64,000 nt of DNA, taken from contig NZ_CP090949.1 in the NCBI RefSeq assembly GCF_023823125.1, positions 1,054,001-1,118,000 on the forward strand, given 5' to 3'. Source of the stretch: Erythrobacter aurantius (lineage in GTDB: Bacteria > Pseudomonadota > Alphaproteobacteria > Sphingomonadales > Sphingomonadaceae). The notes under the pieces were generated by a model, which did not search any database, was not told the DNA's origin, and saw nothing but the letters and a program-made list of their open reading frames with translations. Shown here piece by piece: positions 35,126 to 50,411 of this stretch; position 1 is the first letter of the stretch; the number at the start of each line of letters is the position of its first letter. The translations under genes and the position numbers were made by a program.

Positions 35126-35299
35126 CCTCGCTGTCCGAGTAAGTCACTAATCGGTCTTAGTGTTTTCCGGAAAGCCTGGCGGCTACCCCACAGGTTATCA
35201 CCGAAATCCTCGATCTATCTCTAATAATCGCATAGCGGATGCCGTTCTGCAAGCGGACTAGCTCGATGAATAACAAACCCGCAGTGGTTGGTGACAATT

Positions 35300-35327
35300 T
35301 GAGGCAAGATCGTTGAGGCAAGATCGT
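35300..35327 (+). repeat. Tandem 14-bp repeat beside a palindrome
   Basis: TGAGGCAAGATCGT occurs twice in direct succession (35300-35313 and 35314-35327). The last base is also the first base of the palindrome at 35327-35340. The region 35126-35406 downstream of the reverse transcriptase is otherwise noncoding. Confidence 0.6.
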
Positions 35328-35340
35328 GCACCCGGGTGCA
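35327..35340. repeat. CCCGGG-centred palindrome, copy 1
   Basis: TGCACCCGGGTGCA is a perfect 14-bp palindrome that fits the consensus TGMMCCCGGGKKCA shared by five sites in island 2. It lies 67 bases beyond the stop codon of the reverse transcriptase gene. Confidence 0.7.
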
Positions 35341-35406
35341 GAATAATAAGCGTGTTTGGCTCTACACTGAACGATACTGCAACTTGGCATGCACGGGTCA
35401 TTCTGG

Positions 35407-36678
35407 TCAATCTTCTGGTTGCAAGAAGGTGTAAGGTATAAGCTCACTCAAAGCCCGGGCCTCGAGCACGCTAGCTGCATGGGCTTCCCATTGGCAGCGA
35501 AGACTGCGGGTTCCCGACCACAATGGCCATGATTGGCAATAACCGTGCATCCGCTTCAATACTTGAGGAACCCGTTCGGCGGGCCCATTCTGCAGCTGGT
35601 CCGAGAAGTACGCGAACCGGCCCAGCCAATCCAGCTCGCGGACCCAGAAGGCGCAAGCACCCTCTGGGGTCACCGAGAAGGAGTACCCACCGAAGCGGCA
35701 CTCTTGACTCAAGGGACGTCGAGTGAAGCGTATGTCGAATGGCCCAGCCGGGTGGGACCGAAATCCCACCCGAAGGGTCTGTTCAAGACGCTCTGCCTCT
35801 TGGGCTGGGACGACCAGCCCGAAATTGTCCGAGTAGTTCACCAGAGGGTACGCGCGGAGGGAACCTACTTCCGCGATAATGTTCTGGATCACCATTTCAG
35901 CAATGAGAGGTGAGAGCGCCGAACCCTGCGGCAAGCCGCGCTGGGACATCCTTTCGATTTCCTCTTCCGTAATACGGAGAGCTGGACGCCGTGTTACCCT
36001 AGAAGAGACTGTATACCCGGATGTGAATATCCAAGGCTTCAGGCTTTCAGGCAACGGCACATTTTCCCTCAGCCATTCCGGTGACACATGGTCGTAGAAC
36101 TGACGTACGTCTCCATGGAGGAAAACAGCGTCTGGACCTGCCGTTTCGGCGTGGTCCCTGAGGGTTTCGACGGCGAGGTTCCCTCCGCGTTGACCGTATT
36201 GGTCAGGGCGGTCGCCGAGGAACGGGAGAATAGAGCGAGCTAGCAGCGTCTGCTGCGCGAGATCGGTATCTCGAAACTGTCCTAGGATGCGGGTGCCCCC
36301 ATCCGCCTTCGGCTTCTTCCATACCATCATAGTGCCCGGCTGGGCGTTGAAGCCGATCATCTGTGCGCGGCTGTAGACGAAAGTGAACCGGCGCTTCATC
36401 TCGCAGTTCCGCACGACCGTTTTGTCGCTGGCGGCCACAAAGCGAGCTGCGAATGAGTGGATGTACTCCCGCTGTAGCCTGCGAGCTTTTCGAAGGTTAT
36501 CCTCTGCCACGCTTAGCGCAATCTTCTCGCGATCCCGGCGCTCTTTTGCGCGTGCAATTCGTGTGAAGCGGTGTTGTTCAGCCAGAGTTAGGTCGTTCGG
36601 ACAGCCTTGCTTGCTTGTGATCCTATGGCGAACTTGACGGAAGAAACACTCGTCCGATTTGTTCTCGAGGCAGGTCAT
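35407..36678 (-). CDS. Reverse transcriptase with variant YSDN motif
   Basis: This 423-residue protein is a reverse transcriptase. Finger motifs are visible (KKPKADGGTRILGQFRDTD, about 121-139). Motif A is GDVRQFYDH with Asp190 and Asp196, motif B is RGLPQGSALSP (247-257), and motif C is NYSDNFG with Tyr282, Ser283, Asp284 and Asn285. Most RTs have YxDD; the second Asp is Asn here, confirmed at base level (codon AAT at 35826-35824). The N-terminal 100 residues are basic and helical, with no maturase or HNH domain, so it is not a standard group II intron protein. The start at 36678 forms an ATGA overlap with the AlpA-type gene. Defence or a retron-like role is possible, but I cannot assign a known class. 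Confidence 0.82.
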   Translation of the reverse strand: MTCLENKSDECFFRQVRHRITSKQGCPNDLTLAEQHRFTRIARAKERRDREKIALSVAEDNLRKARRLQREYIHSFAARFVAASDKTVVRNCEMKRRFTFVYSRAQMIGFNAQPGTMMVWKKPKADGGTRILGQFRDTDLAQQTLLARSILPFLGDRPDQYGQRGGNLAVETLRDHAETAGPDAVFLHGDVRQFYDHVSPEWLRENVPLPESLKPWIFTSGYTVSSRVTRRPALRITEEEIERMSQRGLPQGSALSPLIAEMVIQNIIAEVGSLRAYPLVNYSDNFGLVVPAQEAERLEQTLRVGFRSHPAGPFDIRFTRRPLSQECRFGGYSFSVTPEGACAFWVRELDWLGRFAYFSDQLQNGPAERVPQVLKRMHGYCQSWPLWSGTRSLRCQWEAHAASVLEARALSELIPYTFLQPED

Positions 36679-36899
36679 GTGTTGCCCCCGGGGGCAAAGC
36701 TGCCCGCACGAGGCAGGGTATTGCGCCACTCATTCAGCTCTTGCTCTGGCCATGCAACCGCACGCTTTCCAATCCGGACTGGGCGAGGAAACGCCCCATC
36801 GGCCATCAGCGCATATATTTGGCTTTTCTTGAGGCCGACGACACGCTCAACTTCTCGGCGGCGTAGCAGACGATTGGGGGGTGGAGGCTTGAAGATCAT
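36675..36899 (-). CDS. AlpA-type helix-turn-helix regulator
   Basis: This 74-residue DNA-binding protein is of the AlpA/excisionase type: RLLRRREVERVVGLKKSQIYALMADGAFPRPVRIGKRAVAWPEQELNEW holds the MerR-like winged helix. AlpA proteins often control integrase or excision genes in islands and prophages. Here the gene overlaps the reverse transcriptase start as ATGA, so both are translated from one message. A palindrome of the island 2 family (36683-36696) is located inside its last codons, just before the RT start. A sigma-70-like promoter is visible upstream at 36954-36981. It may regulate its own operon or assist excision of the island. Confidence 0.82.
   Translation of the reverse strand: MIFKPPPPNRLLRRREVERVVGLKKSQIYALMADGAFPRPVRIGKRAVAWPEQELNEWRNTLPRAGSFAPGGNT
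36683..36696. repeat. CCCGGG-centred palindrome, copy 2
   Basis: TGCCCCCGGGGGCA is a perfect palindrome (16 bp when the flanking T and A are counted) within the end of the AlpA-type gene. It is four bases upstream of the reverse transcriptase start codon. In mRNA it would form a strong hairpin over the RT ribosome binding site region. Confidence 0.7.
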
Positions 36900-36953
36900 G
36901 AGTCAATGATAAGTGCACTCACGATGATTTCAAGAAAAACCTTTAATATCAAT

Positions 36954-36981
36954 ATATTATATGCATAACATTCTTTGTCAA
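36954..36981 (-). promoter_or_regulatory. Sigma-70-like promoter of the AlpA-RT operon
   Basis: On the minus strand TTGACA (36981-36976) is followed after 16 bases by TAATAT (36959-36954), or after 14 bases by TATAAT. The stretch is strikingly AT-rich compared with its surroundings. It lies 55 bases before the AlpA-type start codon. Confidence 0.55.
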
Positions 36982-37114
36982 ATGCGGTGACGAGAGGGCT
37001 CTGTGACCTTCATTACTGAACGCCGACACCCTGAATTATCGACAGTGAAAACACTTCTCATGCGGTGTGAGCGCACTCTCCGCTAAGCGCGGCTCGAATC
37101 TAGCGTACTCGGTC

Positions 37115-37128
37115 TGAACCCGGGTTCA
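37115..37128. repeat. CCCGGG-centred palindrome, copy 3
   Basis: TGAACCCGGGTTCA is a perfect 14-bp palindrome. It ends one base before the stop codon end of the PD-(D/E)XK gene at 37129. It is 216 bases upstream of the AlpA-type gene start, so it could serve either gene. Confidence 0.7.
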
Positions 37129-38019
37129 CTAGGTCGACTTCTGCAAGCCGCAGGCTAACGCATCGCGGTGCACCGCCGTCCCAGACTGTTCTGCCACAGC
37201 AAGGGCAAGCCCCTTCATCAATCTCGACAGGGTCTCACCCCTTTGCCCATCTGCTGATGCGTCGAGGTGAACTTTCCAGCAGGCAGCGGCAAACTGGGAC
37301 CAAGAAAGATGGTGCATGACCAACCGATCGGCCACACTCCGAAAATGCTCTCCATGGTCTGTCAGCATTTCCCTGATCGCCGCATTCGTCTGAGACACAG
37401 GAACACGCTCAATGTAGTCAGGGTCGATGGATCCATTGGGCCCGGCGCGGCATTGCTCCCAAACGATGCTTGCATCGGGGTGCGGTGTGATGAAGATAAG
37501 ACCCACGTTTTCTCGCGAGCCCGATCGCCTTTCCTCGGCGACAATCAGCGAAATGTATTTGAGAACCTGGCCCGGCCATGTCGTTGAGCCCAGCTTCAGC
37601 TCAACGCCTACCGCGCTGCTACTTGAAACGAAGAAGCCATCTTGTTGCGTGGTGTTGCCATCCGTGAAACCAGTGTAGCGGACGGCGATTTCTCGCCCAA
37701 GCCGCTCGAAGGGACCACTATCTGAGATCCCGGCTGGCTTGAGAATGAGTTCTTCGATCACGTGGTCGGGCGCGATTCCGAACGCGATCTCAAATATGTG
37801 GTTGAGCGGTTCCTCGAGGCGACGCATTCGCTCGGCGTTCTCTTTCGCTGTTCCGCGTCTTGCATAGATCGAGCCGCCATTCTGAACTCGGTTCGCTGGT
37901 ACCGATATCCGATCGCCTTCTTTGATCCATTCGCCCTTCGGAATCGACGGCAACCCAAGCAAGCTTGGATTCCAGTAGAATTGGTCGACTGAGTCCCAAT
38001 ATTTTCGATGCCAGCTCAT
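37129..38019 (-). CDS. PD-(D/E)XK nuclease-like protein of unknown function
   Basis: This 296-residue protein is not one I can assign to a named family. Around residues 125-150 it shows a pattern that fits a PD-(D/E)XK nuclease core: QQDGFF (Asp), then a strand with VGVELKLG (Glu-x-Lys), then a helix with GQVLKY that could supply the fourth conserved residue. This suggests a DNA-cutting enzyme of the restriction or island-defence kind. The start at 38019 is chosen for its ribosome binding site (GGGAGAGG just upstream on the minus strand). The gene is divergent from hsdM and is bracketed by two palindromes of the TGMMCCCGGGKKCA family, 37115-37128 after the stop and 38078-38091 before the start. 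Confidence 0.6.
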   Translation of the reverse strand: MSWHRKYWDSVDQFYWNPSLLGLPSIPKGEWIKEGDRISVPANRVQNGGSIYARRGTAKENAERMRRLEEPLNHIFEIAFGIAPDHVIEELILKPAGISDSGPFERLGREIAVRYTGFTDGNTTQQDGFFVSSSSAVGVELKLGSTTWPGQVLKYISLIVAEERRSGSRENVGLIFITPHPDASIVWEQCRAGPNGSIDPDYIERVPVSQTNAAIREMLTDHGEHFRSVADRLVMHHLSWSQFAAACWKVHLDASADGQRGETLSRLMKGLALAVAEQSGTAVHRDALACGLQKST

Positions 38020-38077
38020 GTCCTCTCCCTGCCTGTGCTCAATGCGTCTTGGCCAAGGCTTGGCCAGCATGGTGCTG

Positions 38078-38091
38078 TGAACCCGGGGGCA
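38078..38091. repeat. CCCGGG-centred palindrome, copy 4
   Basis: TGAACCCGGGGGCA fits TGMMCCCGGGKKCA; its half sites differ in two positions, so it is near-palindromic. It lies in the 170-base divergent promoter region between the PD-(D/E)XK gene and hsdM, where an operator would be expected. Confidence 0.65.
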
Positions 38092-38189
38092 ACTCGGACT
38101 CCACGACGGCGATCGAGCAAAATGTCTGGACCGAGGCTAGGCCGTGGCTAGTATGTTCTGCAAGTGGCTCGTCGAAGGGGATATTCACA

Positions 38190-39746
38190 TTGGCAGTTGA
38201 TCTACAGGACCTCTCGCGAAGGCTCTTCCAGGCTGCGAACCAGCTCTGGACCAACACGGCGCTCAGGCCTGACCAATATGCCCAGCCAGTGCTTGCCCTG
38301 ATCGCGCTGAGGCAGATGGAGGCGAAGTTCGACCAGGTGCACGGTGAGCTGGCAGAGACCTTCACCGGACGCCTCAAGCCCACCCCCCAGGACTACCACG
38401 GCCACGGCGCAGTTTACCTGCCCGACAATGCCCGCTTCTCCTACCTCCTATCCTTGCCTGAGACCGAGGACCTCGCCGAGGCTCTCAACGAGGCCATGAA
38501 AGGCATCACGGAGCATAACCCCGACCTCGCAGGGGTAATGCCCCAAGGCTACGGATCGCTGCCTGACAAGGTCCTGAGGGAGCTTCTGCGCATCCTCCAG
38601 CCGCTCGACATTGGCGGGGATGCCTATGGGGTGATCTTCGAGTACTTCATGGGCGAGTTCGCCTCGGCCTACATGCAAAAGGGCGGCGAGTATTTCACCC
38701 CATCCTCCATCGTTAAGCTGATCGTGGAGGTGATCGAGCCGTACCACGGGAAAATCTTCGATCCTGCCTGCGGCTCCGGCGGGATGTTTGTCCACTCTGC
38801 CGACTTCGTAAAGCGTCACCACAAGACCCCCAGCCGCGAGCTGAGCGTCTACGGGATCGAGAAGATGGAGGACACGCAGAAGCTGTGCCGCCTCAACCTC
38901 GCGGTTCATGGGCTTTCTGGGGACATCGTGGTGGCCAACAGCTATTACGAAGACCCGCATCAGATGGTCGGCAAGTTCGACTTCGTCATGGCGAACCCCC
39001 CGTTCAACCAGTCCCAGGTGGATACCGAACGGCTGGTAAATGATGCGGGACATGTGGACGCCCGGTTCTCGCTCGGCATCCCCAAGGTGGGCAACGCGAA
39101 CTACCTATGGGTCGGCCTTTTCCATGCGGCGCTGAACGATACGGGTCGTGCGGGGTTCGTCATGGCCAACTCGGCCTCCGATGCTGGCGGGTCGGAGCGT
39201 GAGCTAAGGAAGAAGCTGGTGCAATCGGGATCGGTCGACGTCATCATCTCTACATCGCCCAAAATGTTCTTCACGGTGTCTCTGCCGGTGACCTTGTGGT
39301 TCCTCGACAAGGCCAAGGCGAAAGGCGAGCGGGCAGACGAGGTACTCTTTATCGATGCTCGCAACATCTACCGAGAGGTTGGACGGGCGCACCGCGAGTA
39401 CACGCCGGAGCACATCGAGTTCATCGGGAACATCGTGCGGATGTGGCGCGGCGAAGAGGTGGAGACCGAGCTTGGTAGCGCGGACCTCATGGTCGAGACC
39501 TTCGGAGACGATAGCTTCAAGGACATCCCAGGCCTCTGCAAGGTCGCCAGCCGGTCGGAGATTGAGGCGCAGGACTGGAGCCTTAACCCTGGGCGCTATG
39601 TGGGCGTGGCGGCTGGTGAGCAGATCGACGACGTTGACTTCAAGGAGCGGCTGGAGGGCCTGCAGGAGGAGCTGGAGGTGCTAAACGCAGAAGCGGCGCG
39701 GCTGCAGGAAGTGATTGCGGCGAACGTGGCTGAAGTGCTGGCTTGA
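38190..39746 (+). CDS. hsdM: Type I restriction-modification methyltransferase subunit HsdM
   Basis: This 518-residue N6-adenine methyltransferase subunit has a helical N-terminal HsdM_N domain (SRRLFQAANQLWTNTALRPDQYAQPVLALIALRQME). Motif I is DPACGSGGMF (about 191-200) and motif IV is NPPF (269-272). With HsdS it methylates the host recognition site, and with HsdR it forms the restriction complex. A TTG start at 38190 is chosen, ten bases after GAAGGGG. The frame is open upstream to 37965, but that part overlaps the divergent gene and has no HsdM-like sequence. It is the first gene of the hsdM-small ORF-hsdS-DUF4268-hsdR operon. Confidence 0.93.
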   Translation: MAVDLQDLSRRLFQAANQLWTNTALRPDQYAQPVLALIALRQMEAKFDQVHGELAETFTGRLKPTPQDYHGHGAVYLPDNARFSYLLSLPETEDLAEALNEAMKGITEHNPDLAGVMPQGYGSLPDKVLRELLRILQPLDIGGDAYGVIFEYFMGEFASAYMQKGGEYFTPSSIVKLIVEVIEPYHGKIFDPACGSGGMFVHSADFVKRHHKTPSRELSVYGIEKMEDTQKLCRLNLAVHGLSGDIVVANSYYEDPHQMVGKFDFVMANPPFNQSQVDTERLVNDAGHVDARFSLGIPKVGNANYLWVGLFHAALNDTGRAGFVMANSASDAGGSERELRKKLVQSGSVDVIISTSPKMFFTVSLPVTLWFLDKAKAKGERADEVLFIDARNIYREVGRAHREYTPEHIEFIGNIVRMWRGEEVETELGSADLMVETFGDDSFKDIPGLCKVASRSEIEAQDWSLNPGRYVGVAAGEQIDDVDFKERLEGLQEELEVLNAEAARLQEVIAANVAEVLA

Positions 39747-39781
39747 TCTATGTCGGCAACGGAGAGGAATGAGGCGGCTCT

Positions 39782-39997
39782 ATGAACTTCGAACTACTGT
39801 TTGCACGCCTTTCGACTGATAGCCTGCATGAGCTGTATGAGGCCGTTCGAAGTGCACTTGCAGATGATGATGGCAAAGAAGACCCTTCAGAGCGACGGTA
39901 TCTGGTGCGTGAAACCAGGGATTGGCGAGAGTGGTCAGAAGCCATTGAGGCTGAGCTTGAAAAGCGCGACGTCAGTTTCGAGAAGATCGAATGGTAA
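39782..39997 (+). CDS. Small acidic protein within the hsd operon
   Basis: This 71-residue acidic protein (starting MNFELLFARLSTDSL, ending FEKIEW) is predicted to be almost wholly helical. It has no signal peptide or membrane segment, and I do not recognise it. It is 35 bases after hsdM and overlaps the hsdS start by seven bases, so it is translated in line with the restriction subunits. Coding strand, compact spacing and overlap support a real gene. It may be an accessory or control factor of this type I system. Confidence 0.6.
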   Translation: MNFELLFARLSTDSLHELYEAVRSALADDDGKEDPSERRYLVRETRDWREWSEAIEAELEKRDVSFEKIEW

Positions 39998-41178
39998 AGG
40001 CTTGGCGCGATTGCACCTTGGGTGACGTGCTTACCCTTCAGCGTGGTTTTGATCTGCCCACGCGCCTTAGGGTCGAAGGCCCTTTTCCTGTGGTCTCTTC
40101 AGCGGGGGTTTCGGGCAGTCACAACGAGGCTAAGGTCCATGGCCCTGGTGTGGCGATTGGTCGATACGGCACCTTGGGCGAAGTTCACTACGTTGTGGAA
40201 GACTTTTGGCCATTGAACACCACGCTGTGGGTGAAGGACTTCAAGGGCAACGAGCCACTTTATTGTGCTCACCTTCTCAAAACGCTCGCTGTCGCTGAAA
40301 CCTCAGGCTCGTCTGCAGTTCCTGGCGTAAATCGAAACGTCCTCCATGGGTTGCCTGTGAAGTGCCCGCCCTTGGAAACCCAGCAGCGCATTGCCGCGAT
40401 CCTCGGAGCCTATGACGACCTGATCGAGGTCAACCGGCGGCGGGTGGCGGTGCTGGAGGAGATGGCGCGGGGGCTGTTCGAGGAGTGGTTCGTCCGCTTC
40501 CGCTTCCCTGGCCACGAGGACGTGCCCATCGTCGACACCCCCGATGGCCCGCTGCCGGAGGAGTGGGAGTGGGCGCGACTTGGAGATGCATGTAGCATCA
40601 TTCGGTCAGGCTCTACTCCTTCTCGAAAAGAGCCGGAGTTCTGGGATGCAGGGATTTTGGACTGGTTCACGACAGGAGAACTGAGGGGGTCCTTTCTCTT
40701 CTCTTCAAAGGAAAAGGTCTCACAGGCTGCCATCGACAAGAAGAAGGCCAGGGTCTTCCCATCGGGCACAGTCTTCATAGCACTTTATGGAGCCACAATC
40801 GGGGCACTTGGGATTTCAAACGTTAGCTGCTCCAGTAATCAAGCTGCGCTCGGTTTAGTTGGCGACGGGAGGCGTATGCGACAATGGCAACTTTTTCACA
40901 CCCTTGAGAGATTGAAGGATTGGTTCATTTCTGTCGGTCAAGGTGCTGCGCAGCAGAACATCAGCAAGGAAAAAGTTTCTGGGGCGACTGTTGCACTCCC
41001 ACCAGCCATCATTTCTGAGCTTTTCGACAAGCGAGTATCTGCCCTGTGGGAGCTGAGGAAGAACTTAGAATGGCAGGAAAGTCTGTTAAAGACATCCCGC
41101 GACCTCCTGCTCCCCCGCCTCATCTCCGGCCAGCTCTCCGTCGAGGCTGCCGAACGCCAACTGGAGGACGTCGCATGA
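39991..41178 (+). CDS. hsdS: Type I restriction specificity subunit HsdS
   Basis: This 395-residue subunit determines the DNA recognition sequence. It has two target recognition domains: the first from about residue 5 (WRDCTLGDVLTLQRGFDLP) to 150, the second from about 190 (WEWARLGDACSIIRSG) to 340. Each is followed by a conserved helical repeat (ETQQRIAAILGAYDDLIEVNRRR and the final LWELRKNLEWQESLLKTSRDLLLPRLISG). The arrangement predicts a bipartite target. The start overlaps the small ORF, and the stop overlaps the next gene as ATGA. TRD DNA differs in codon flavour from its GC-rich flanks, consistent with exchange of recognition domains by recombination. Confidence 0.92.
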   Translation: MVKAWRDCTLGDVLTLQRGFDLPTRLRVEGPFPVVSSAGVSGSHNEAKVHGPGVAIGRYGTLGEVHYVVEDFWPLNTTLWVKDFKGNEPLYCAHLLKTLAVAETSGSSAVPGVNRNVLHGLPVKCPPLETQQRIAAILGAYDDLIEVNRRRVAVLEEMARGLFEEWFVRFRFPGHEDVPIVDTPDGPLPEEWEWARLGDACSIIRSGSTPSRKEPEFWDAGILDWFTTGELRGSFLFSSKEKVSQAAIDKKKARVFPSGTVFIALYGATIGALGISNVSCSSNQAALGLVGDGRRMRQWQLFHTLERLKDWFISVGQGAAQQNISKEKVSGATVALPPAIISELFDKRVSALWELRKNLEWQESLLKTSRDLLLPRLISGQLSVEAAERQLEDVA

Positions 41179-42152: not shown

Positions 42153-45100
42153 TGGCTCCGTCGCTCTCCGGTTTGGTCGCCTCCGAGGACGGCATCGTCG
42201 AGCAGCCTGCAATGGCGCTGATGGAGGAGCTTGGCTGGGAGCGTGTAAACCTGCTCCACGATGTGCCTGGGCCGGACAACGCCTATGGCCGCACGAGCCT
42301 CAAGGAACCGCACCTTCCCGCAAGGCTGCGAGCAGCGCTTCAGAAGCTCAACCCAGGCAAACCCGCAGAGGCCCTCAAGCTGGCCGAGGAGGAGCTGACG
42401 CGGGACCGTTCGGCGCTGCAGCCTATTGCCGCTAACCGTGAGGTCCTGAGGCTCCTTAGGGAAGGCGTCAGGGTCGAGGTGAAGAACGACCAAGGCAAGT
42501 TCGAAGACATGCTGGTCCGTGTGATCGACTGGAAGAACCCGACCAACAATGACTTCCTCGTCGCCAACCAAGTCTGGATCGAGGGGGTCCTCCACACACG
42601 CCGCCCCGACACAATTGGCTACGTTAATGGCCTGCCGCTGCTGTTCGCCGAGTGGAAAGCGCCTACCTCACCATTCTCCGAGGCTTACGAGAAGAACCTG
42701 CGCGACTACAAAGACGTGATCCCGCAGCTCTTCCACGCCAACGGGTTCGTGATCCTTTCCAACGGCCTTGAGACCCGCATTGGCGGCAGTCACGCGCCGT
42801 TCCAGTTCTTCTCGCCCTGGAAGCGGCTAGAGGAGGGAGGCCCCGAAGACCCCAGCCTGGAGACCATGCTCAGGGCCACCTGCGAGCCTGCCCGCTTCCT
42901 CGACATGCTGGAGAACTTCGTCCTGTTCGACGAGGCAAAGGGCGGTCTCATCAAGATCATCGGACGCTACCACCAGGTGCTAGGGGTCAACAGGGCGATC
43001 GAGGCTGTTCGTCACATCAAGGAGAACAAGGGGCGGCTGGGGGTCTTCTGGCACACCCAGGGGTCGGGCAAGAGCCTCTCTATGGTGATGTTCGCCGAGA
43101 AGGTCCTGCGCCGCATGGGCGGCAACTACACTTTCGTGATCGTGACCGACCGCACCGAGCTGGACGACCAGATCGCGGGCCAGTTCGCCACGGCAGGAGC
43201 ACTCACCAAGGACACCCAGCAGACCCAGGCGGGCAGCAGGGCGCACCTGAGGGACTTGCTCGCTGGCAACGAACGCTACGTCTTCACGCTGATCCAGAAG
43301 TTCTCGACCGATGACAAAGAGCCAATGCCGGTGCTCTCGGAACGCTCGGACATCATCGTGATGACCGACGAGGCCCACAGGAGCCAGTACGCCCAGCTTG
43401 CGGCCAACATGCGCAAGGCACTGCCCAATGCGGCCTTCATCGGGTTCACTGGCACCCCTCTCATCAAGGGGGACGAGAGCCGGACCAAAGAGGTCTTCGG
43501 GGACTATGTGTCGGTCTACGACTTCGCGCAGTCGGTGAAGGACGGAGCGACCGTTCCGCTGTTCTACGAGGGACGAAAGCCGGAACTCCAGCTTAACTCG
43601 GACGAGTTGCAGGAGGAGCTGGACGAGCTGCTCGACGAGGCGATGCTGGACGAGGAGCAGGAGAAGAAGCTCAACCAGCAATTCGGGAGGCAGTACACGC
43701 TCATCACCAATCCCGACCGGCTGGACAAGGTTGCCGAGGACGTGGCGTTACACTTTGCCCAACGTGGCTATCGCGGCAAGGCGATGTTCGTTGCCATCGA
43801 CAAGGCCACGGCGGTTGCGATGCATGACAAGGTCAAGGCTGCAGTCGCCAGGATGATCGAGGCCGACGAAAAGAGGCTGAAGACTGCCCACGAGGCCGAA
43901 GGAGCGGCCATCGCCGAGCGGCTGGTCTGGCTGCGAGAACTCGACATGGCGGTGGTGGTGAGCCAGGGCCAGAACGAGGTCGACGATCTGCGCCAGAAGG
44001 GTCTCGACATCCTCCCGCACCGCGAGCGCATGCAGAAAGAGGACCTGGAGACCAAGTTCAAGGACAAGGACGATCCACTGCGCCTCGTGTTCGTCTGCGC
44101 CATGTGGATCACGGGCTTCGACGTCCCCAGCATCGGCACGATCTACCTCGACAAGCCGATGAAGTCGCACACGCTGATGCAGACCATCGCCAGGGCTAAC
44201 CGGAAGTCGGAAGGTAAGACCTCTGGGGTGATCGTGGACTATGTGGGCGTGTTCCAGAACCTCCAGAAGGCGCTGGCTGTCTACGCGGCTGGCAGGGGCG
44301 ACGGCGAAACGCCGATCAAAGGCAAGGAGGAGCTGGTCAAGGAACTGGAGACCGCTCTTGAAGCCGTGCGGGCCTTTGTGGAGCCGCTCAGCGTCGATCC
44401 TGAGGCGATCATGGATGCCAGGGACTTCGAGCGGCTCAAGCTTATCAACGAGGCCGTGGAGGCTCTGGTGGCCCCTGAGGATCGCCGTAGGGAGTTCTTG
44501 AGGCTCGCTGGGGCGGTCACACAGGCCTACAAGTCGCTGCTGCCTGACGAGCGAGCCGCGCCCTTCCTCAGGCCTGTGGCGGTGTTCCACACGCTGTCCG
44601 ACGCGGTGAGAGCCAAGCTCGGCCCTGTCGACATCTCGGCAATCTCGGCCAGGATCGCCCAACTCCTCGACGAGAAGCTAGAAGGGGTCGCCATAGTCAC
44701 TCCCATCGTCGAGGGTGATACCGCCGAGGGCCGCGTGGACCTCTCAGGGATCGACTTCGAGAAACTCGCCAGCCTCTTTGAGACCAGCCCCAAGGTTGCC
44801 ACCGAGAAGATGCGCGAGGCTGCAGAGGAAAAGGCCAAGAAGATGGCTCAGTCGAACCCCACGCGGGTGAGCTTTGTCGAGCGGCTGGAGAAGCTGGTCG
44901 CGGCCTACAACGCTGGGTCAATCGACGCCGAGAAGTTCTTCGAGGGCCTGAAGGCGTTCATCAAGAGCTTGGACGATGAGGAGCAAAGAGCGGCGAGAGA
45001 AGAGCTGACCGAAGAGGAGCTGGCGATCTTCGATCTTCTCACCACGCCAGAACCGAAGCTTACCAAGGCGCAGGAGCAGGAGGTCAAGAAGGTGGCTCGT

Positions 45101-45331
45101 GGGCTGTTGGAGAAGCTCCAGGGGCTTGTGGACGCCGTGGACTGGGTAAGGGGTCAGGAAACCAGAGGAAGCGTCTGGACGGCCATCAGGATGGGCCTGA
45201 ACGAGCTGCCGGAGGACCCGTACCCGCAGGACCTGTGGGACGCGAAGGTCGATCAGGTGTGGGATTTTGTGCTGAGGCGGTATGCGGGTTACAAACCCAA
45301 TGACAAGGGCGTCGACGAGCACCCCAATTGA
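42152..45331 (+). CDS. hsdR: Type I restriction endonuclease subunit HsdR
   Basis: This 1059-residue motor and nuclease subunit has an N-terminal PD-(D/E)XK domain with RPDTIGY (Asp near 151) and LLFAEWKAP (Glu-x-Lys near 168). The superfamily 2 translocase follows: Walker A THTQGSGKS-like HTQGSGKSLS (about 301-310), DEAHRSQ (about 406), FTGTPL, and the second RecA domain with ITGFDVPSIGTIYLDKP and QTIARANRK. The helical C-terminus would bind HsdM. It cuts unmethylated foreign DNA after translocation. All catalytic residues are present, so the system looks functional. The start codon shares a base with the DUF4268 stop. Confidence 0.93.
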   Translation: MAPSLSGLVASEDGIVEQPAMALMEELGWERVNLLHDVPGPDNAYGRTSLKEPHLPARLRAALQKLNPGKPAEALKLAEEELTRDRSALQPIAANREVLRLLREGVRVEVKNDQGKFEDMLVRVIDWKNPTNNDFLVANQVWIEGVLHTRRPDTIGYVNGLPLLFAEWKAPTSPFSEAYEKNLRDYKDVIPQLFHANGFVILSNGLETRIGGSHAPFQFFSPWKRLEEGGPEDPSLETMLRATCEPARFLDMLENFVLFDEAKGGLIKIIGRYHQVLGVNRAIEAVRHIKENKGRLGVFWHTQGSGKSLSMVMFAEKVLRRMGGNYTFVIVTDRTELDDQIAGQFATAGALTKDTQQTQAGSRAHLRDLLAGNERYVFTLIQKFSTDDKEPMPVLSERSDIIVMTDEAHRSQYAQLAANMRKALPNAAFIGFTGTPLIKGDESRTKEVFGDYVSVYDFAQSVKDGATVPLFYEGRKPELQLNSDELQEELDELLDEAMLDEEQEKKLNQQFGRQYTLITNPDRLDKVAEDVALHFAQRGYRGKAMFVAIDKATAVAMHDKVKAAVARMIEADEKRLKTAHEAEGAAIAERLVWLRELDMAVVVSQGQNEVDDLRQKGLDILPHRERMQKEDLETKFKDKDDPLRLVFVCAMWITGFDVPSIGTIYLDKPMKSHTLMQTIARANRKSEGKTSGVIVDYVGVFQNLQKALAVYAAGRGDGETPIKGKEELVKELETALEAVRAFVEPLSVDPEAIMDARDFERLKLINEAVEALVAPEDRRREFLRLAGAVTQAYKSLLPDERAAPFLRPVAVFHTLSDAVRAKLGPVDISAISARIAQLLDEKLEGVAIVTPIVEGDTAEGRVDLSGIDFEKLASLFETSPKVATEKMREAAEEKAKKMAQSNPTRVSFVERLEKLVAAYNAGSIDAEKFFEGLKAFIKSLDDEEQRAAREELTEEELAIFDLLTTPEPKLTKAQEQEVKKVARGLLEKLQGLVDAVDWVRGQETRGSVWTAIRMGLNELPEDPYPQDLWDAKVDQVWDFVLRRYAGYKPNDKGVDEHPN

Positions 45332-45386
45332 AGATCCAAAGCTGGTGCTTCGAGTTGATCGTACGCGACATATGGAGGGCCAGAGG

Positions 45387-45836
45387 ATGCTTGTAACAGT
45401 GGGATGGGATGTTGGCCTCCTCTGGGATGTCGAACAGGATGATCAAGAAACACTCGAGGAGTTTGGCGACGCCAATCAATGTGTCGCTCTAAGGCGAGCC
45501 AAGTTGCTTACCTTGCTACAAGTCAGCGAGCAGCAAAGCGAAGATGGTTTCCTAGTAGCTGAGCGGAAAACTCAGCATTTTATGCAGTGTCTGAACACGA
45601 GCGGAGGTTGGATCCTCGAAAAACGGGAAGGGCATGCGTCGGCCCACTACAGGGCCGCGCTCATCGAACAACCAGAATGCTCGGCGTCAGAGGCTTCGAT
45701 TGTTGATCGGATACTGGCGCATCCCAGGCAACCCCAACTGTACTTGAGCACTGAACAGGTTCTAGCTGCCTTCGCAGCATACCTCGCGCATGAACCAGAA
45801 CCTGATTGGTTGAATTGGGAGCGGATGGATGTGTAA
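45387..45836 (+). CDS. Hypothetical protein after hsdR
   Basis: This 149-residue protein starts MLVTVGWDVGLLWDVEQDDQ. Its only obvious feature is a mixed alpha/beta composition with a tryptophan-rich C-terminus (PDWLNWERMDV). I do not recognise a family. The start at 45387 is chosen because GGAGGG lies seven bases before it; the frame is open to 45282, inside hsdR. It is 29 bases before the phosphatase gene and may be cotranscribed with it. The absence of a signal peptide points to the cytoplasm. Confidence 0.6.
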   Translation: MLVTVGWDVGLLWDVEQDDQETLEEFGDANQCVALRRAKLLTLLQVSEQQSEDGFLVAERKTQHFMQCLNTSGGWILEKREGHASAHYRAALIEQPECSASEASIVDRILAHPRQPQLYLSTEQVLAAFAAYLAHEPEPDWLNWERMDV

Positions 45837-45865
45837 CTTGAGGTGTGCGATCTGGAGGATCCGCA

Positions 45866-46795
45866 GTGGAATATGATGTGGTTGGTGACATCCATGGCAA
45901 CAACGAGGCCTTGGAAACCTTGCTTGCCGAGCTTGGCTATCGTCGGTCACGGGGATCTTGGCTCGGCCCATCGGATCGACAAATTATCTTTGTTGGCGAT
46001 TTTGTGGATCGCGGCCCCGGCCAGGTCGAAGTGATCTCGACAGTTCGTAGTCTAATGGACTCCGGCCATGCCCTAGCAATTCTTGGGAACCATGAGCTAA
46101 ATGCGATAGCTTGGCATCGCGGTTTCCGACCTGACAGCCAAAAAAACCGAAAGCAACATCAAGGGTTTCTTGAGCAGGTTGGCGAACGAAGTGATCTTCA
46201 CGACGAGCTAGTCGATTGGTTCTTGACCCTTCCTATGTGGCTTGATCTGTCGGAACTGCGAGTTGTTCACGCATGCTGGCATTGGCCTTCGATCGACGTC
46301 TTGCAGACGCGATTGGCCGATCAGCGATTAACTGACGACCTGATCGCGCTCGCCACTGTCGGCGCAAGCAACACAATTGGGCGAGATGGAGTGCCTCCCA
46401 ATGAACATCCGGTTTTTTCGGCAGTAGAGACATTGCTGAAAGGCATCGAGGTTGAACTCCCCGAGGGCGTCTCGTTCCTCGACAAGGACAAGAATCGACG
46501 AAGCTCCGTGAGGGTTAAATGGTGGGAGCAACCACCCGCAACTTACGGCGATGTGACGCTATCGCCGGTGCACGATTTGGCCGCGATGGCTACGAAACTC
46601 CCTGAGGGTGTCTTGCCCGGATACGATGAGCACAAGCCTTGCTTTATTGGTCATTATTGGCGTCGAGGCAGGCCGGAATTGTTGTCACCGCGTATTGCTT
46701 GCGTGGACTACAGCGCTGGAGCTGACGGTCCTTTGGTCGCCTACTGCTGGCGCGGTGAGGATGTGTTGAACGCGGAGAATTTTCGATCGACATGA
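45866..46795 (+). CDS. PPP-family metallophosphatase
   Basis: This 309-residue metallophosphoesterase has the three signature blocks of the PPP/PNKP-phosphatase type: GDIHG (about 7-11), GDFVDRG (about 43-49) and GNHE (about 77-80). A late His in CFIGHYW follows. Such enzymes bind two metals and remove phosphate from proteins, nucleic acid ends or dinucleotides. A GTG start at 45866 is chosen because GGAGGA sits eight bases upstream and because it begins directly with the metallophosphatase strand (EYDVVGDIHG). It is 38 bases before an ADP-ribosylglycohydrolase gene. That pairing hints at ADP-ribose or nucleic-acid end processing, but the substrate cannot be read here. Confidence 0.85.
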   Translation: MEYDVVGDIHGNNEALETLLAELGYRRSRGSWLGPSDRQIIFVGDFVDRGPGQVEVISTVRSLMDSGHALAILGNHELNAIAWHRGFRPDSQKNRKQHQGFLEQVGERSDLHDELVDWFLTLPMWLDLSELRVVHACWHWPSIDVLQTRLADQRLTDDLIALATVGASNTIGRDGVPPNEHPVFSAVETLLKGIEVELPEGVSFLDKDKNRRSSVRVKWWEQPPATYGDVTLSPVHDLAAMATKLPEGVLPGYDEHKPCFIGHYWRRGRPELLSPRIACVDYSAGADGPLVAYCWRGEDVLNAENFRST

Positions 46796-46833
46796 CGAGG
46801 TAAACGGCTGGAATATTTGGCGAAGGATGGAAG

Positions 46834-47757
46834 ATGGTGGACTTGAAGTCACGGGCCAGAGGTGCGCTGATCGGCTTGGCAGTGGGTGATGCAGTCGGCA
46901 CAACCCTCGAATTCAGGCCTCGCGACACTTACGAACCACTCACTGACATGGCTGGAGGTGGCCCATTTGATCTTCCAGCTGGCACCTGGACAGATGACAC
47001 CGCAATGGCTCTGGCACTTGCGGAAAGCCTAGTTGAGCAGAAAGCCCTCGATCCGGACGATTTGATGCGCCGATTTGTCAGTTGGTGGCGCGAAGGGACG
47101 TACAGTCCGACAGGTGCGTGCTTCGACATCGGTATTGCTACTCGCTTGGCTCTCTCCCGCTTCGAAGAAACCGGAGATGCTCTTGCGGGATCCAGCGATC
47201 CCAGATCGGCAGGCAACGGTTCGCTGATGCGGCTTGCGCCTATCGCTATTCGCGGCGCAGCCATAGACAGGGAGACGATGCGGGCGGAGGCAAGGCTACA
47301 GAGCCAGACCACACACGCTGCAGAAGCATGCGTGGACGCCTGCGAAGGCTGGGCGGTCATGCTTCGAGAAGTCCTTCGAGGCGCAAGCTTCGAAGAGGGG
47401 CTGGCTGCGGCTGCCCAACTTGATTTCAAAGATCCCATAGGGCCGGTCTTTGCTGGTGTTTGGCGGACCAAAGGTCGTTCTCAGATCGAGAGCAGTGGCT
47501 ACGTGGCGCATTCCTTGGAGGCTGCGCTTTGGTGCAATGCACAATCAGAGGATTTTCGGGAGATTATTTTGCTGGCCGCAAACCTTGGCAATGACGCCGA
47601 CACGACAGCAGCAATCGCCGGGCAACTGGCAGGTGCGCGACTAGGCTTAGAAAAGATCCCAGATGCGTGGCTTGCGAAGCTTGCATGGCGTGAACGATTG
47701 CAGGTTGCCGCCGACAAATTGATCTTAGGCGAGATGCCCTTGGGCATTGTCGCGTGA
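46834..47757 (+). CDS. ADP-ribosylglycohydrolase family protein (DraG/ARH type)
   Basis: This 307-residue enzyme has the ARH fold motifs: GALIGLAVGDAVGTTLEF at 9-26, the metal-site WTDDTAMALALAE near 51, NGSLMRLAP near 128, and NLGNDADTTAAIAGQLAGA near 250. All expected metal ligands (TDD and DxDT) are present, so it should remove ADP-ribose from proteins or small molecules. The ribosome binding site AGGATGGAAG precedes the ATG directly. It follows the metallophosphatase by 38 bases on the same strand. In a defence island such a hydrolase could reverse a toxin's ADP-ribosylation, but no ADP-ribosyltransferase is seen nearby. Confidence 0.9.
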   Translation: MVDLKSRARGALIGLAVGDAVGTTLEFRPRDTYEPLTDMAGGGPFDLPAGTWTDDTAMALALAESLVEQKALDPDDLMRRFVSWWREGTYSPTGACFDIGIATRLALSRFEETGDALAGSSDPRSAGNGSLMRLAPIAIRGAAIDRETMRAEARLQSQTTHAAEACVDACEGWAVMLREVLRGASFEEGLAAAAQLDFKDPIGPVFAGVWRTKGRSQIESSGYVAHSLEAALWCNAQSEDFREIILLAANLGNDADTTAAIAGQLAGARLGLEKIPDAWLAKLAWRERLQVAADKLILGEMPLGIVA

Positions 47758-47787
47758 GCAATATACCCCTTTGACAAGCCGCCGCCA

Positions 47788-47810
47788 TTTGGAGGCGAAC
47801 CAGCTCCAAA
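47788..47810. terminator. Hairpin after the ADP-ribosylglycohydrolase gene
   Basis: TTTGGAG (47788-47794) and CTCCAAA (47804-47810) form a perfect 7-bp stem with a nine-base loop, 30 bases after the stop. There is no T tract, so it may be a weak terminator or an mRNA end-stabiliser. The rest of 47811-47952 shows no gene. Confidence 0.4.
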
Positions 47811-47952
47811 GCAGAGCTCATTCAGGCGCTTAGTTGCCTTCCTGTTATGACTATTCCTTTGCGGTAGCACACCGACGGGTCCTCGTGCTGAACGCCGATC
47901 TCTTCCAGCAGCATAAGGTGACAAGCCTTCAGGTGAAGCCTACCAAGCGGAA

Positions 47953-48687
47953 ATGAGTACTGTAAGCAGCAAGCCTCGAAGTGTGCGCGTCGGCACATGG
48001 AATGTCGCCTGGAAGCATCCTTCACGGTCGGCTGGTCGGACGATGCGCGAGCGGTTGCTTGCGGAGGATCCAGAGGTTCTTTGCATCACCGAGGCGGATG
48101 CCCAGTTCATGGGCTCGACTGGCCATACGATCTGCGCTGAAGCCGACTACGGCTATCAGCTGACGGGCAACCGCAGAAAGGTGCTGTTATGGAGCAGGCA
48201 GCCGTGGTTGACCCATGATACTCTCGGTGATCCAGCCCTGCCACCGGGCCGCTTCGTGGCAGGGCGAACTCTTACCAGCGCAGGGCCACTTCTAGTTGTC
48301 GGCGTGTGTATCCCGTGGGCCGCCGCGCATGTCAGCACGGGACGGAAGGATAAAAAGCGCTGGGAGGACCATTTGGCCTATCTTGATGGCTTGCATACGT
48401 ATCTCTCGAAGCTCGCTGAGCCGTTTGTGCTAATGGGCGACTTCAATCAGGCTGTTCCCCGCCGCACGGCTCCAGAGCATGTGTTTGATGCCCTCGAGCG
48501 GGCGGTCCTGGCCCAGGTCGAGTTATTTACCTCGGGCGATGTAGAGCCCTGCGGGTATTCGATCGATCACATCGCCGGGCCAAAGGGGTCCTCATGCAGC
48601 TGGCGGAAGGGTCTGCATGCGCTCGGGGCCGAGAAGGAGGTTTTGAGTGACCACTTTGGCATCATTGCCAGACTGAGATACAGCTAG
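47953..48687 (+). CDS. Endonuclease/exonuclease/phosphatase (EEP) family protein
   Basis: This 244-residue protein has the DNase I-like EEP fold: RVGTWNVAWKHPS at the N-terminus, ITEAD with the catalytic Glu near residue 48, FVLMGDFNQAVPRR with Asp and Asn near 157, and a closing SDHFGI with Asp-His near 234. All key residues are present. The substrate could be nucleic acid or a phosphoester. It is 195 bases after the ADP-ribosylglycohydrolase and has its own gap, so it may have a separate promoter. There is no signal peptide. Confidence 0.85.
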   Translation: MSTVSSKPRSVRVGTWNVAWKHPSRSAGRTMRERLLAEDPEVLCITEADAQFMGSTGHTICAEADYGYQLTGNRRKVLLWSRQPWLTHDTLGDPALPPGRFVAGRTLTSAGPLLVVGVCIPWAAAHVSTGRKDKKRWEDHLAYLDGLHTYLSKLAEPFVLMGDFNQAVPRRTAPEHVFDALERAVLAQVELFTSGDVEPCGYSIDHIAGPKGSSCSWRKGLHALGAEKEVLSDHFGIIARLRYS

Positions 48688-48854
48688 TCGGAGCAGTTGC
48701 CTCGACCTAGCCATTACTGCAACGATTACCGGAAGCATTGTTGGGTATCTATGCGCCATTGCCGCAAGCGATCTTGTGTAAGGCGGATGAATGCCCCAAG
48801 TTTTTCGCGTCGTCCATGATCGCAGCGACTGGAAAAACGCCAGAATTTGCTCTC

Positions 48855-49064
48855 TCAACCTGATTTCAGAAATGCCAGATAGTCCGCCACACTTGCAGCG
48901 ATTTCTGCTTTGCTCATCTCTTCAGGGCAACCAGGAGTAAAGCTGCCTAAACAGGCCCCAGCCTCGTCATAGAAATGTGTCACTCCGCCGTAGTCGTCAT
49001 AACGAGAAAAGACCTTGTAGGTTTTCCCGTTGACCTCGACGTAGGTCGTGGAATGGTTTGGCAT
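48855..49064 (-). CDS. Small hypothetical protein
   Basis: This 69-residue protein has a likely beta-hairpin N-terminus (TTYVEVNGKTYKVFSRYDDYGG) and an acidic C-terminal helix. The start at 49064 is chosen because AAGGGAGG lies six bases before it on the minus strand; the frame is open to 49085. It lies 28 bases or so downstream of the integrase start region on the same strand as the integrase and could be read from the same message. I do not recognise it. Confidence 0.55.
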   Translation of the reverse strand: MPNHSTTYVEVNGKTYKVFSRYDDYGGVTHFYDEAGACLGSFTPGCPEEMSKAEIAASVADYLAFLKSG

Positions 49065-49092
49065 ATTGACCTCCCTTCTGTCCAATAGACGC

Positions 49093-50250
49093 CTAGTCTA
49101 CATGTCTTATATCGTTGAGGAATGAGCTCCACTCCTCCATCAAATCACGACGCTTATCGAATAGGTCTGAGCGAGCATATGCTGCTCTAGTCTTGTCGCT
49201 GCTCACGTGTGCTAGTGCTAGTTCCGAAATCTCATCCGAATAGCTGGTTCTCTCCCGTGCCCAGTCCTTGAATGTCGAGCGCCAACCGTGAACTGTGAAC
49301 CCGGGTGCACATTGCTTGAAGACCTTAGAGATGGCTGTGTCGCTGAGTGGCTTCCCACGCATGTTCGGGAAAACCAGCTCGGACGAGTCCGAAAGCGTTC
49401 GGACCTTTGCCAAGAAGTCGACCGTATGTGTCGAAAGGGGAACTCGGTGTTCAACTCCAGCCTTCATGCGAGATGCAGGAATCTTCCACACTCGGGCATC
49501 AAGATCAAATTCGGCCCATCGGGCTTCTCTCGCCTCAGAGGATCGACAACCCGTAAGCATGACCAGCTGCAGCGCCAGTGCTGCCATGCCGTCATGCGTG
49601 AGCAGCTTGGAGTAGACGGTTGGAGCAGCCTTAAACGGAACCGCAGGATGATGCCGAACCGTTCGCTTCTGAGGTGGAAGGTGTGCCCTGATCGCCTTTA
49701 CGGGCAGGTCGGCCTCCCTATGGCCTAAGGGCACGGAATAGCCAATTACAAATGCCACACGCTGCAACACCCTTCTGGCGGTCTCTTGTTTGGTTACCCA
49801 TATAGGGCGTAGTAAAGCCATCACGTCCGATGCAGTTACCTTGTCGATCGCCAAATCACCAATGAATGGGAATGCGTACGCTTCCAGGGTGTTGATCCAC
49901 TGATCTCGATGCTTTGAATTCTTGAATGTAGCTGCCCGCTCGACGTGGACCTGCCTTGCTAGGGTGGCAAAGGTAGGTGTCGCTGCTGGCTTCAAAGCAA
50001 AGGTAGGATCGCTCCCATTCGCCGCAGCAATCCTTGCAAGGCGGGCCTTTTCTCGAGCTTCTGCTAGAGAGAACAGCTTAGCGCTTCCGAGACCGATGTC
50101 ACGCCGTCGACCGCATTGGTCGGTGATCCGCGCCACGTAGGAACGACCGCCGCCCCTTGATATCTGAAGATATACATTTCCGCCCAGCGAGTGCTTGCCG
50201 GGATGTTTGATGTTTGCCGCCTCGCGGTCAGTCTTTAATTTTATGGGCAT
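49093..50250 (-). CDS. Tyrosine integrase of island 2
   Basis: This 385-residue P4-type integrase is complete. An N-terminal arm-binding domain (GRRRDIGLGSAKLFSLAEAREKARLARI) and a core-binding domain precede the catalytic residues: Arg in LTGCRSSEAREARW, the HGWRSTFKDW box, His in LALAHVSS and Tyr in TRAAYARSD. It lies directly beside the tRNA-Ser gene whose 3' end is the attachment site, with the gene reading away from the tRNA. It should drive insertion and excision of island 2. The start at 50250 is preferred over an upstream ATG at 50274 because the protein then begins like its relatives. The coding sequence contains one palindrome of the island 2 family (49296-49309). Confidence 0.92.
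   Translation of the reverse strand: MPIKLKTDREAANIKHPGKHSLGGNVYLQISRGGGRSYVARITDQCGRRRDIGLGSAKLFSLAEAREKARLARIAAANGSDPTFALKPAATPTFATLARQVHVERAATFKNSKHRDQWINTLEAYAFPFIGDLAIDKVTASDVMALLRPIWVTKQETARRVLQRVAFVIGYSVPLGHREADLPVKAIRAHLPPQKRTVRHHPAVPFKAAPTVYSKLLTHDGMAALALQLVMLTGCRSSEAREARWAEFDLDARVWKIPASRMKAGVEHRVPLSTHTVDFLAKVRTLSDSSELVFPNMRGKPLSDTAISKVFKQCAPGFTVHGWRSTFKDWARERTSYSDEISELALAHVSSDKTRAAYARSDLFDKRRDLMEEWSSFLNDIRHVD
49296..49309. repeat. CCCGGG-centred palindrome, copy 5
   Basis: TGAACCCGGGTGCA fits TGMMCCCGGGKKCA. It lies inside the integrase coding sequence, where codon constraints also apply, so it is the weakest member of the set. Confidence 0.55.
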
Positions 50251-50396: not shown

Positions 50397-50411
50397 GTGG
50401 CGGAGACGGAG
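50397..50411. repeat. att site, tRNA-Ser end (right end of island 2)
   Basis: GTGGCGGAGACGGAG forms the last bases of the tRNA-Ser gene (its encoded CCA end and 3' acceptor stem, read on the minus strand). It is repeated at 35107-35121 and 16799-16813. Insertion therefore rebuilt a complete tRNA gene on the right side. Confidence 0.88.

What the first reader, a model, noticed from the sequence alone, without database searches (positions are those of the whole stretch)
35327..49309. Five-copy palindrome family TGMMCCCGGGKKCA confined to island 2
The sequence shows TGCACCCGGGTGCA (35327), TGCCCCCGGGGGCA (36683), TGAACCCGGGTTCA (37115), TGAACCCGGGGGCA (38078) and TGAACCCGGGTGCA (49296). All five fit one dyad-symmetric 14-bp consensus with ten fixed and four two-way positions. 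At equal base frequencies about one copy in 17 million positions is expected, so five in 15 kb is far from chance even in GC-rich DNA. I found none outside island 2 when reading for CCCGGG. The sites cluster around the RT, AlpA and PD-(D/E)XK genes, one is in the hsdM divergent promoter region and one is in the integrase gene. I infer binding sites of an island-encoded dimeric protein, for example a shared operator, a replication/excision site or a nuclease target.
Basis: partly seen in the sequence, partly recalled or inferred. Interest (0 to 1): 0.8.

Follow-up and report, generated by a model that had tools for sequence, protein, structure and literature searches.

The report
Palindromic sites of an AlpA–RT cassette
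A short mirror-symmetric DNA word occurs five times in this genome, all inside one mobile island and mostly at the seams between a nuclease gene, a small DNA-binding gene and a reverse-transcriptase gene, and a similar gene pair in another bacterium carries near-copies at matching places, so the words look like control sites rather than coincidence.

Summary
In detail: five exact TGMMCCCGGGKKCA sites at the stated coordinates and no sixth in the 3.42-Mb genome. All lie in a tRNA-Ser island bounded by 15-bp repeats (35107-35121, 50397-50411).

Support came from relatives. Of 50 distinct alpA loci fetched, only G334's alpA overlaps an xSDN reverse transcriptase as in the window. It has four sites within 2 mismatches in 1.5 kb; the other 49 loci have two in all. 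A near-site ends 4 nt before the RT start codon in the window, G334 and G047; apart from loci fetched for the motif, the 18,219 distinct ATGs of the other loci gave no further case. Fetched relatives of the nuclease lack the exact motif.

I read the palindromes as operator-like sites of an accessory gene–AlpA–RT operon, most likely bound by AlpA. Real and cassette-linked: about 0.85. AlpA as reader: 0.45, since G047 has another HTH type. No binding data.

The parts
35107..35121 (+). 15-bp repeat of the tRNA-Ser 3' end: left boundary (att-like) of island 2
   Evidence: GTGGCGGAGACGGAG at 16799, 35107 and 50397
35299..35326 (+). two tandem copies of TTGAGGCAAGATCG directly abutting the palindrome
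   Evidence: read in the sequence
35327..35340 (.). site 1, TGCACCCGGGTGCA, perfect palindrome, 66 nt downstream of the RT stop, outside the annotated genes
35407..36678 (-). reverse transcriptase, 423 aa, NYSDN at the catalytic motif; start overlaps the alpA stop (ATGA)
   Evidence: PF00078; P0070 and alignment A2
36683..36696 (.). site 2, TGCCCCCGGGGGCA (16-bp palindrome with flanks), in the last codons of alpA and ending 4 nt before the RT start codon
36675..36899 (-). alpA, 74-aa AlpA-family HTH protein ending GSFAPGGNT
   Evidence: PF05930 E 9e-21; compare P0088
37115..37128 (.). site 3, TGAACCCGGGTTCA, perfect palindrome, directly after the nuclease stop codon, upstream of alpA
37129..38019 (-). 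PD-(D/E)XK nuclease-like protein, 296 aa (D127, E140, K142 invariant in A1); accessory gene of the operon. A longer frame opens at 38070, but relatives start at the internal Met
   Evidence: 69 proteins (the query included); alignment A1; no Pfam hit. PD-(D/E)XK is my reading of the motif, not a database hit
38078..38091 (.). site 4, TGAACCCGGGGGCA, between the divergent nuclease and hsdM genes, 58 nt from the nuclease start codon
49093..50274 (-). island 2 integrase (tyrosine recombinase)
   Evidence: PF00589, PF22022, PF13356
49296..49309 (.). site 5, TGAACCCGGGTGCA, inside the integrase gene (encodes A-P-G-F)
50397..50411 (+). right boundary repeat at the 3' end of tRNA-Ser (gene 50398-50488, minus strand)

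Best explanation
The palindromes are cis-acting, operator-like sites belonging to an operon of one accessory gene (here a PD-(D/E)XK nuclease), a small AlpA-type DNA-binding protein and an xSDN reverse transcriptase. A dimer, most likely of AlpA itself, binds the 14-bp site through two TGNMCCC half-sites. Copies before the accessory gene, between it and alpA, and at the alpA-RT junction let AlpA control the whole cassette, including RT synthesis at the RT ribosome-binding site; copies after the RT and in the integrase gene may tie the cassette to the rest of the island. Shown: positions, genome-wide exclusiveness, near-sites at matching junctions of a second AlpA-RT cassette, and the fixed 4-nt spacing to the RT start in three genomes. 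Inferred: that a protein binds, that it is AlpA, and the sign of regulation.
For: (1) Exclusiveness and clustering. (2) Of 50 distinct alpA loci (58 rows, 8 repeated), only L052 (G334; AlpA 57.5% identical) has an xSDN RT next to alpA (tblastn and a motif scan within about 1.5 kb), and it alone has 4 sites with at most 2 mismatches; the other 49 have 2 in all. Of 62 alpA rows only the window and L052 end in FAPG. Shuffling L052: mean 0.14, 0 of 2000 with 4. (3) In 20 kb around it (L081) all 4 hits lie in the 1.5 kb of the cassette: one overlaps the -35 of a promoter-like sequence upstream of the 149-aa gene P0087, one lies upstream of alpA ahead of TATAAT at 7823, one at the alpA-RT junction, one in the RT gene. 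(4) The junction site ends 4 nt before the RT ATG in the window, G334 and G047. The window has 1,942 distinct ATGs (1 hit, the RT), other loci 18,219 (2 hits, both RT starts), loci fetched for the motif 4,424 (1 hit, L008). (5) At the start of the AlpA recognition helix, [KR]KS occurs in 2 of 62 rows, the two motif-bearing ones. (6) AlpA is a positive autoregulator in Gram-negative satellites (passages of PMC6092414 and PMC11773190).
Against: AlpA proteins of similar identity over their aligned part, with no RT seen beside them, have no site: L053 56%, L054 57%, L095 56%, L097 60%; so the tie may be to the RT. G047 keeps the junction site although its HTH protein is of another type (PF12728, recognition helix GVSRRTLSRW). 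Only the junction site is shared in position by all three genomes. Of 8 RT loci inspected at the RT start (window, L081, L121-L126; start taken as the first ATG of the frame, uncertain for L123-L126), 5 lack the site; hits of 2 mismatches elsewhere in L048 (2), L123 (1) and L126 (3) are not at RT starts. Predicted alpA promoters in the window (36981-36906) overlap no palindrome, and promoter-like hits are no more frequent than shuffles allow. In PICMI, AlpA induced excision without changing gene expression (PMC10803314 passage). Two window sites are coding. There is no binding, expression or structural evidence.
Confidence: 0.45

Rival explanations
1. The element belongs to the reverse transcriptase rather than to AlpA: the site at the RT start (DNA or mRNA) is recognised by the RT or its nucleic-acid product, as translational autocontrol or as a priming/template element, and the other copies are further targets.
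For: The only position shared by window, G334 and G047 is 4 nt before the RT start; the HTH protein differs in G047 while the RTs are relatives; the other alpA loci, without an RT, lack clustered sites. The window RT's relative P0071 has a reading frame running upstream that is compatible with TGYCCNCGNGGNCA and the same 4-nt spacing (read from A2; its DNA was not seen).
Against: No conserved RNA hairpin: junction z-scores 0.64, -1.70, -1.05, although the window junction does form a local stem-loop in its best fold. 5 of 8 inspected RT loci lack the site. The arms keep half-sites rather than complementarity, which suits protein-bound duplex DNA.
Confidence: 0.2
2. The sites are excision (Xis/recombination directionality) sites: AlpA acts as excisionase on the island ends.
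For: AlpA relatives act in excision in PICMI and EcCIMP1 elements (passages of PMC10803314, PMC11773190); site 1 lies about 205 bp inside the attachment repeat and abuts a tandem direct repeat; site 5 is in the integrase gene.
Against: Three of five sites sit 1.6-3 kb inside the element at gene junctions. In G334 two near-sites are at promoter-like sequences, and none of the five flanking proteins tested there is an integrase.
Confidence: 0.12
3. Chance cluster of a GC-rich palindrome helped by codon choice (A-P-G-G, A-P-G-F).
For: Post-hoc consensus; families with 5 copies are common in simulated windows. Two of five sites are coding, and the two sites in G157 lie in coding sequence (APGF, LAPGG; read).
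Against: Rarity- and cluster-corrected scores exceed 80 of 80 and 400 of 400 simulations; near-sites at the G334 cassette and at the G047 RT start were found with the motif fixed beforehand. 0 of 8 other distinct integrases listed has CCCGGG at the site-5 position.
Confidence: 0.13
4. The sites are targets of the neighbouring PD-(D/E)XK nuclease or of a host restriction system (CCCGGG core).
For: A nuclease gene lies between sites 3 and 4; the core is a known restriction word (recalled).
Against: No exact motif in any nuclease-relative locus fetched. The G334 cassette has a different accessory gene. CCCGGG occurs 9 times in the window against 15 expected, only a mild deficit.
Confidence: 0.05

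Closest known systems
RptR operators of Type I restriction islands (PMC12255303; abstract and section list seen)
   Same: Palindromic sites bound by a small dimeric island-encoded regulator that controls a defence island with Type I restriction-modification
   Different: The RptR site is a 6-bp TAGCTA palindrome within direct repeats in one promoter; here a 14-bp site spread over gene junctions beside an AlpA-RT cassette, binding untested
AlpA master regulator of Gram-negative phage-inducible islands (PMC6092414, PMC11773190; passages seen)
   Same: AlpA-family protein in an integrase-bearing island, expected to act on its own promoter
   Different: No operator sequence in the passages read; no RT operon mentioned there; here sites also lie downstream of alpA
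Unknown-group / defence-associated reverse transcriptases (UG/DRT; PMC8934634 passages seen)
   Same: Stand-alone bacterial RT in a defence-type island, weak PADLOC hits to UG17 and UG4
   Different: Hits weak (best general RT model 1.6e-10, UG17 2.3e-6); catalytic motif YSDN instead of the usual YxDD (recalled); partner is AlpA, and no SLATT_5 (UG17) or fimbrial (UG4) domain among the ten island proteins scanned
TorI/Xis recombination directionality factors (PDB 1z4h; also AlpA-family 8c3t)
   Same: Sequence relatives of AlpA with solved structures
   Different: Matched by sequence only; their DNA sites were not compared
P. aeruginosa AlpA antiterminator and its binding element (PMC7969949; passages seen)
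   Same: Name, predicted winged-helix DNA binding, element between -35 and -10
   Different: Whether that AlpA belongs to the same protein family was not checked

Membership tests
Operator family of an island-encoded regulator | Repeated, symmetric site specific to the island | tested here: met
   5 of 5 genome copies in the island
Operator family of an island-encoded regulator | Site overlaps or adjoins promoters of the controlled genes | tested here: inconclusive
   One, perhaps two, near-sites in G334; no window site overlaps a predicted sigma-70 promoter
Operator family of an island-encoded regulator | Site co-occurs with its regulator in other genomes | tested here: inconclusive
   Met for the AlpA-RT cassette of G334; other AlpAs lack it, and G047 keeps one site with a different HTH protein
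Operator family of an island-encoded regulator | Regulator binds the site | not testable with these tools
   needs gel shift or footprint
Excisionase (RDF) sites | Sites lie in the attachment-site arms | tested here: inconclusive
   Site 1 is about 205 bp from the att repeat; sites 2-4 are 1.6-3 kb inside
Excisionase (RDF) sites | Excision depends on AlpA and the sites | not testable with these tools
   needs deletion and empty-site PCR
RNA stem-loop element | Conserved, unusually stable hairpin across relatives | tested here: not met
   z-scores between -1.70 and 0.69 over 8 sites; no Rfam match at the sites
Genome-wide dispersed palindrome (REP/HIP-like) | Many copies across the genome | tested here: not met
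   5 copies, one island
DRT/UG reverse transcriptase | Strong match to a described UG/DRT model | tested here: not met
   only weak partial hits in PADLOC; PHROGs not searched
DRT/UG reverse transcriptase | Anti-phage activity | not testable with these tools
   no assay

The most novel reading that the evidence does not exclude
A previously undescribed kind of mobile RT module: a swappable accessory gene, a small HTH protein and an xSDN reverse transcriptase, held together by a palindromic element at every gene junction and fixed 4 nt before the RT start codon, through which the RT or its DNA product, and not only a repressor, acts on the cassette (self-limiting switch or gene-swap site).
Probability: 0.15. 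Interest if true: 0.75.

Novelty: new variant of a known kind. Interest (0 to 1): 0.5.

Why it matters
How islands of defence-type genes and stand-alone reverse transcriptases are kept off and switched on is largely open. A short, unmistakable cis-element that marks AlpA–RT cassettes would give a handle for finding them by DNA alone and a direct bench test of what controls the RT. The RT subgroup itself (xSDN motif, overlapping a small HTH gene, with integrase-linked relatives) fitted no RT class well in the Pfam, NCBIfam and PADLOC searches made here.

Tried and rejected
Nuclease as the link: relatives in 16 database contigs and 5 whole-genome loci (3 places, one marginal) carry no exact motif. 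RT DNA relatives: none in genome contigs with the single protein, none in viral contigs; in plasmids only remote, mostly group II intron-type hits for the window RT and one for the G334 RT; none in plasmids or phages for the G047 RT; class-wide hits weak, 10 of 384 other genomes, and without a site of 1 mismatch or less. AlpA: none in viral contigs or phages; 10 remote plasmid hits, not examined further; 6 other proteins, no DNA. Three more alpA loci from G334's genus had no site (L128-L130); no further RT of the G047 type in its genus (1 of 11 genomes, G047 itself). No plasmid record holds most of 34000-41900 (0 of 23 matching records). Gapped motifs with 1-11 bp spacers: none in the window. 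Two-site genome G157: both sites in coding sequence, read as chance. An exact junction pattern in viral contigs: none. RNA hairpin and Rfam: negative. RT homologues in metagenome assemblies gave proteins only; the P0071 statement rests on its reading frame alone.

Not in print: searches for AlpA with reverse transcriptase, UG17 and defense, AlpA with palindromes, binding sites, excision and prophage terms, AlpA with restriction-modification, RT and sphingomonads, CCCGGG with operator, AlpA with retron and HTH_17 with RT listed no title or abstract that describes this site or cassette. I saw the listings, not the full papers; only open-licence papers are held. A search for '8C3T' gave nothing relevant.
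Full report
OBSERVATION. The five sites are present exactly as stated and they are the only five in the genome of 3,422,084 bases; the backwards pattern gives none. With one mismatch allowed there are nine more places, scattered over the chromosome, one of them in the window at 1433. Because an exact string has 34 one-mismatch neighbours, nine neighbours imply about 0.26 exact copies expected per genome. In 198 other genomes of the family, 22 have a match and none has more than two.

LOOK-ELSEWHERE. Counting all 14-bp palindrome families with ten fixed positions, simulated windows reach five copies of some family in 16 of 40 (order 3) and 6 of 40 (order 5) cases. Judged against its own expectation (0.066 per window) this family has p = 9.8e-9, below all 80 simulations, and with clustering included it is below all 400. 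Absence elsewhere in the genome is not independent evidence, since the background is near zero anyway.

SETTING. A 15-bp word from the 3' end of tRNA-Ser (gene 50398-50488) recurs at 16799, 35107 and 50397, which I read as two islands in tandem. Island 2 (35107-50411) holds all five sites; island 1 has none. Within island 2, on the minus strand, lie nuclease (37129-38019), alpA (36675-36899) and RT (35407-36678), the last two overlapping by ATGA. Site 4 is 58 nt upstream of the nuclease start, site 3 abuts the nuclease stop, site 2 spans the end of alpA and ends 4 nt before the RT start codon, and site 1 is 66 nt past the RT stop, right after a tandem 14-bp repeat. So every boundary of the three-gene operon has one site. 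Site 5 lies in the integrase gene, where it encodes A-P-G-F; 0 of 8 other distinct integrases listed has CCCGGG there. [quoted passage not shown]

RELATIVES. The nuclease has many relatives but none of the fetched loci has the exact motif. The RT is rare: nine proteins other than itself were found, and no DNA for them was retrieved. alpA gave the informative test. I fetched the loci offered for the best matches of an order-wide search (30 loci, of matches in 124 of 296 genomes) and of a family search (30 loci, of 50 of 397 genomes): 58 rows besides the window's own, 50 distinct loci. One, G334 (L052/L081), resembles the window's cassette: a 74-aa AlpA (57.5% identical), ending GSFAPGDNA, overlapping by ATGA an RT with FSDN (P0090; 24% identity to the window RT over 157 residues). 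Of 62 alpA rows checked, only the window and L052 end in FAPG. L081 carries TGACCCGAGGGTCA, TGACCCTGGGTTCA, TGCACCCGGGGACA and CGCCCCCGGGGGCT (2, 1, 1 and 2 mismatches) within 1.5 kb, and none elsewhere in 20 kb. The other 49 loci hold two such hits. Shuffles of L052 average 0.14 and never reach 4 in 2000. The first of these overlaps the -35 of a promoter-like sequence (TTGACC-17-CATAAT; one such hit found, 0.6 expected in shuffles) upstream of a 149-aa gene (P0087), the second lies ahead of alpA with TATAAT at 7823, the third is at the alpA–RT junction. The order site–accessory gene–site–alpA–site–RT is thus the same in both, although the accessory genes differ in size and show no shared family.

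THE RT START. RT relatives found through P0090 (7 of 397 family genomes) include G837, G047 and G832, where an integrase, a protein of 185-215 aa and a 63-70-aa HTH protein precede the RT. In G047 the 14-mer TGAAACCGGGTGCA (1 mismatch) again ends 4 nt before the RT ATG. Counting each ATG context once, the window has 1,942 ATGs with one hit of 2 mismatches or fewer at that offset (the RT start); other fetched loci have 18,219 with two hits (the G334 and G047 RT starts); loci that I had fetched because they hold the motif have 4,424 with one hit (L008). Five other RT loci (L121, L123-L126) do not have it, with the caution that their starts are the first ATG of the frame. Scattered 2-mismatch hits in L048, L122, L123 and L126 lie elsewhere.

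HOW IT MAY WORK. Arms are conserved as half-sites, not as complements, and folding energies are unremarkable, which favours a dimer on duplex DNA over an RNA hairpin. AlpA is the only small regulator among the three cassette genes; the two motif-bearing AlpAs share [KR]KS at the recognition helix, seen in no other of 62 rows. AlpA autoregulates in satellites, though in PICMI it induced excision without changing gene expression. Against AlpA as reader, AlpAs of similar identity without an RT have no site, and G047 keeps the RT-start site with another type of HTH protein. I therefore put 0.45 on AlpA as reader, 0.2 on an RT-linked element, 0.12 on excision sites, 0.13 on chance and 0.05 on a nuclease target.

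KNOWN SYSTEMS. RptR (abstract seen) is the nearest described case that I found of a palindrome-reading regulator of a restriction island. RT classes UG17 and UG4 are the nearest named RT models but the matches are weak, and their typical neighbours (passages) are not among the ten island proteins scanned. I found no description of this site or cassette in the searches listed under Tried and rejected.

Noticed in passing
window 16799-16813, 35107-35121, 50397-50411: Three copies of the tRNA-Ser 3' end suggest two islands inserted in tandem; integrase 1 ends island 1, integrase 2 ends island 2.
   Followed up: partly
window 33813-34958, minus strand: The integrase of island 1 is interrupted by an in-frame stop codon near 34067, so it looks like a pseudogene.
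   Followed up: no
L121, L122, L124 (RT at 8185, 8173, 8959): A recurring order: integrase, protein of 185-215 aa, small HTH protein (63-70 aa), reverse transcriptase. L121 and L122 have YCDN at the catalytic motif, L124 has YADD.
   Followed up: partly
window 35299-35326: Tandem 14-bp repeat TTGAGGCAAGATCG directly beside site 1 and about 180 bp inside the attachment repeat.
   Followed up: no
window 38190-45331: Type I restriction-modification system with a DUF4268 (PADLOC PDC-S11) gene between hsdS and hsdR.
   Followed up: no
L031/L034 (G362) and L032/L035 (G077): Relatives of the nuclease whose reading frames are interrupted; described only.
   Followed up: no
L122 7964-8176: The small HTH protein beside the G047 RT matches, far below cutoff, the MAD1 regulator of the methylation-associated defence system (NF047737, E 8.6e-5).
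   Followed up: no
L124, about 15-45 nt upstream of the RT start taken at 8959: A near-palindromic, partly repeated TTGCAACGGGTTGCAACGGGC, possibly a diverged version of the same element (seen).
   Followed up: no
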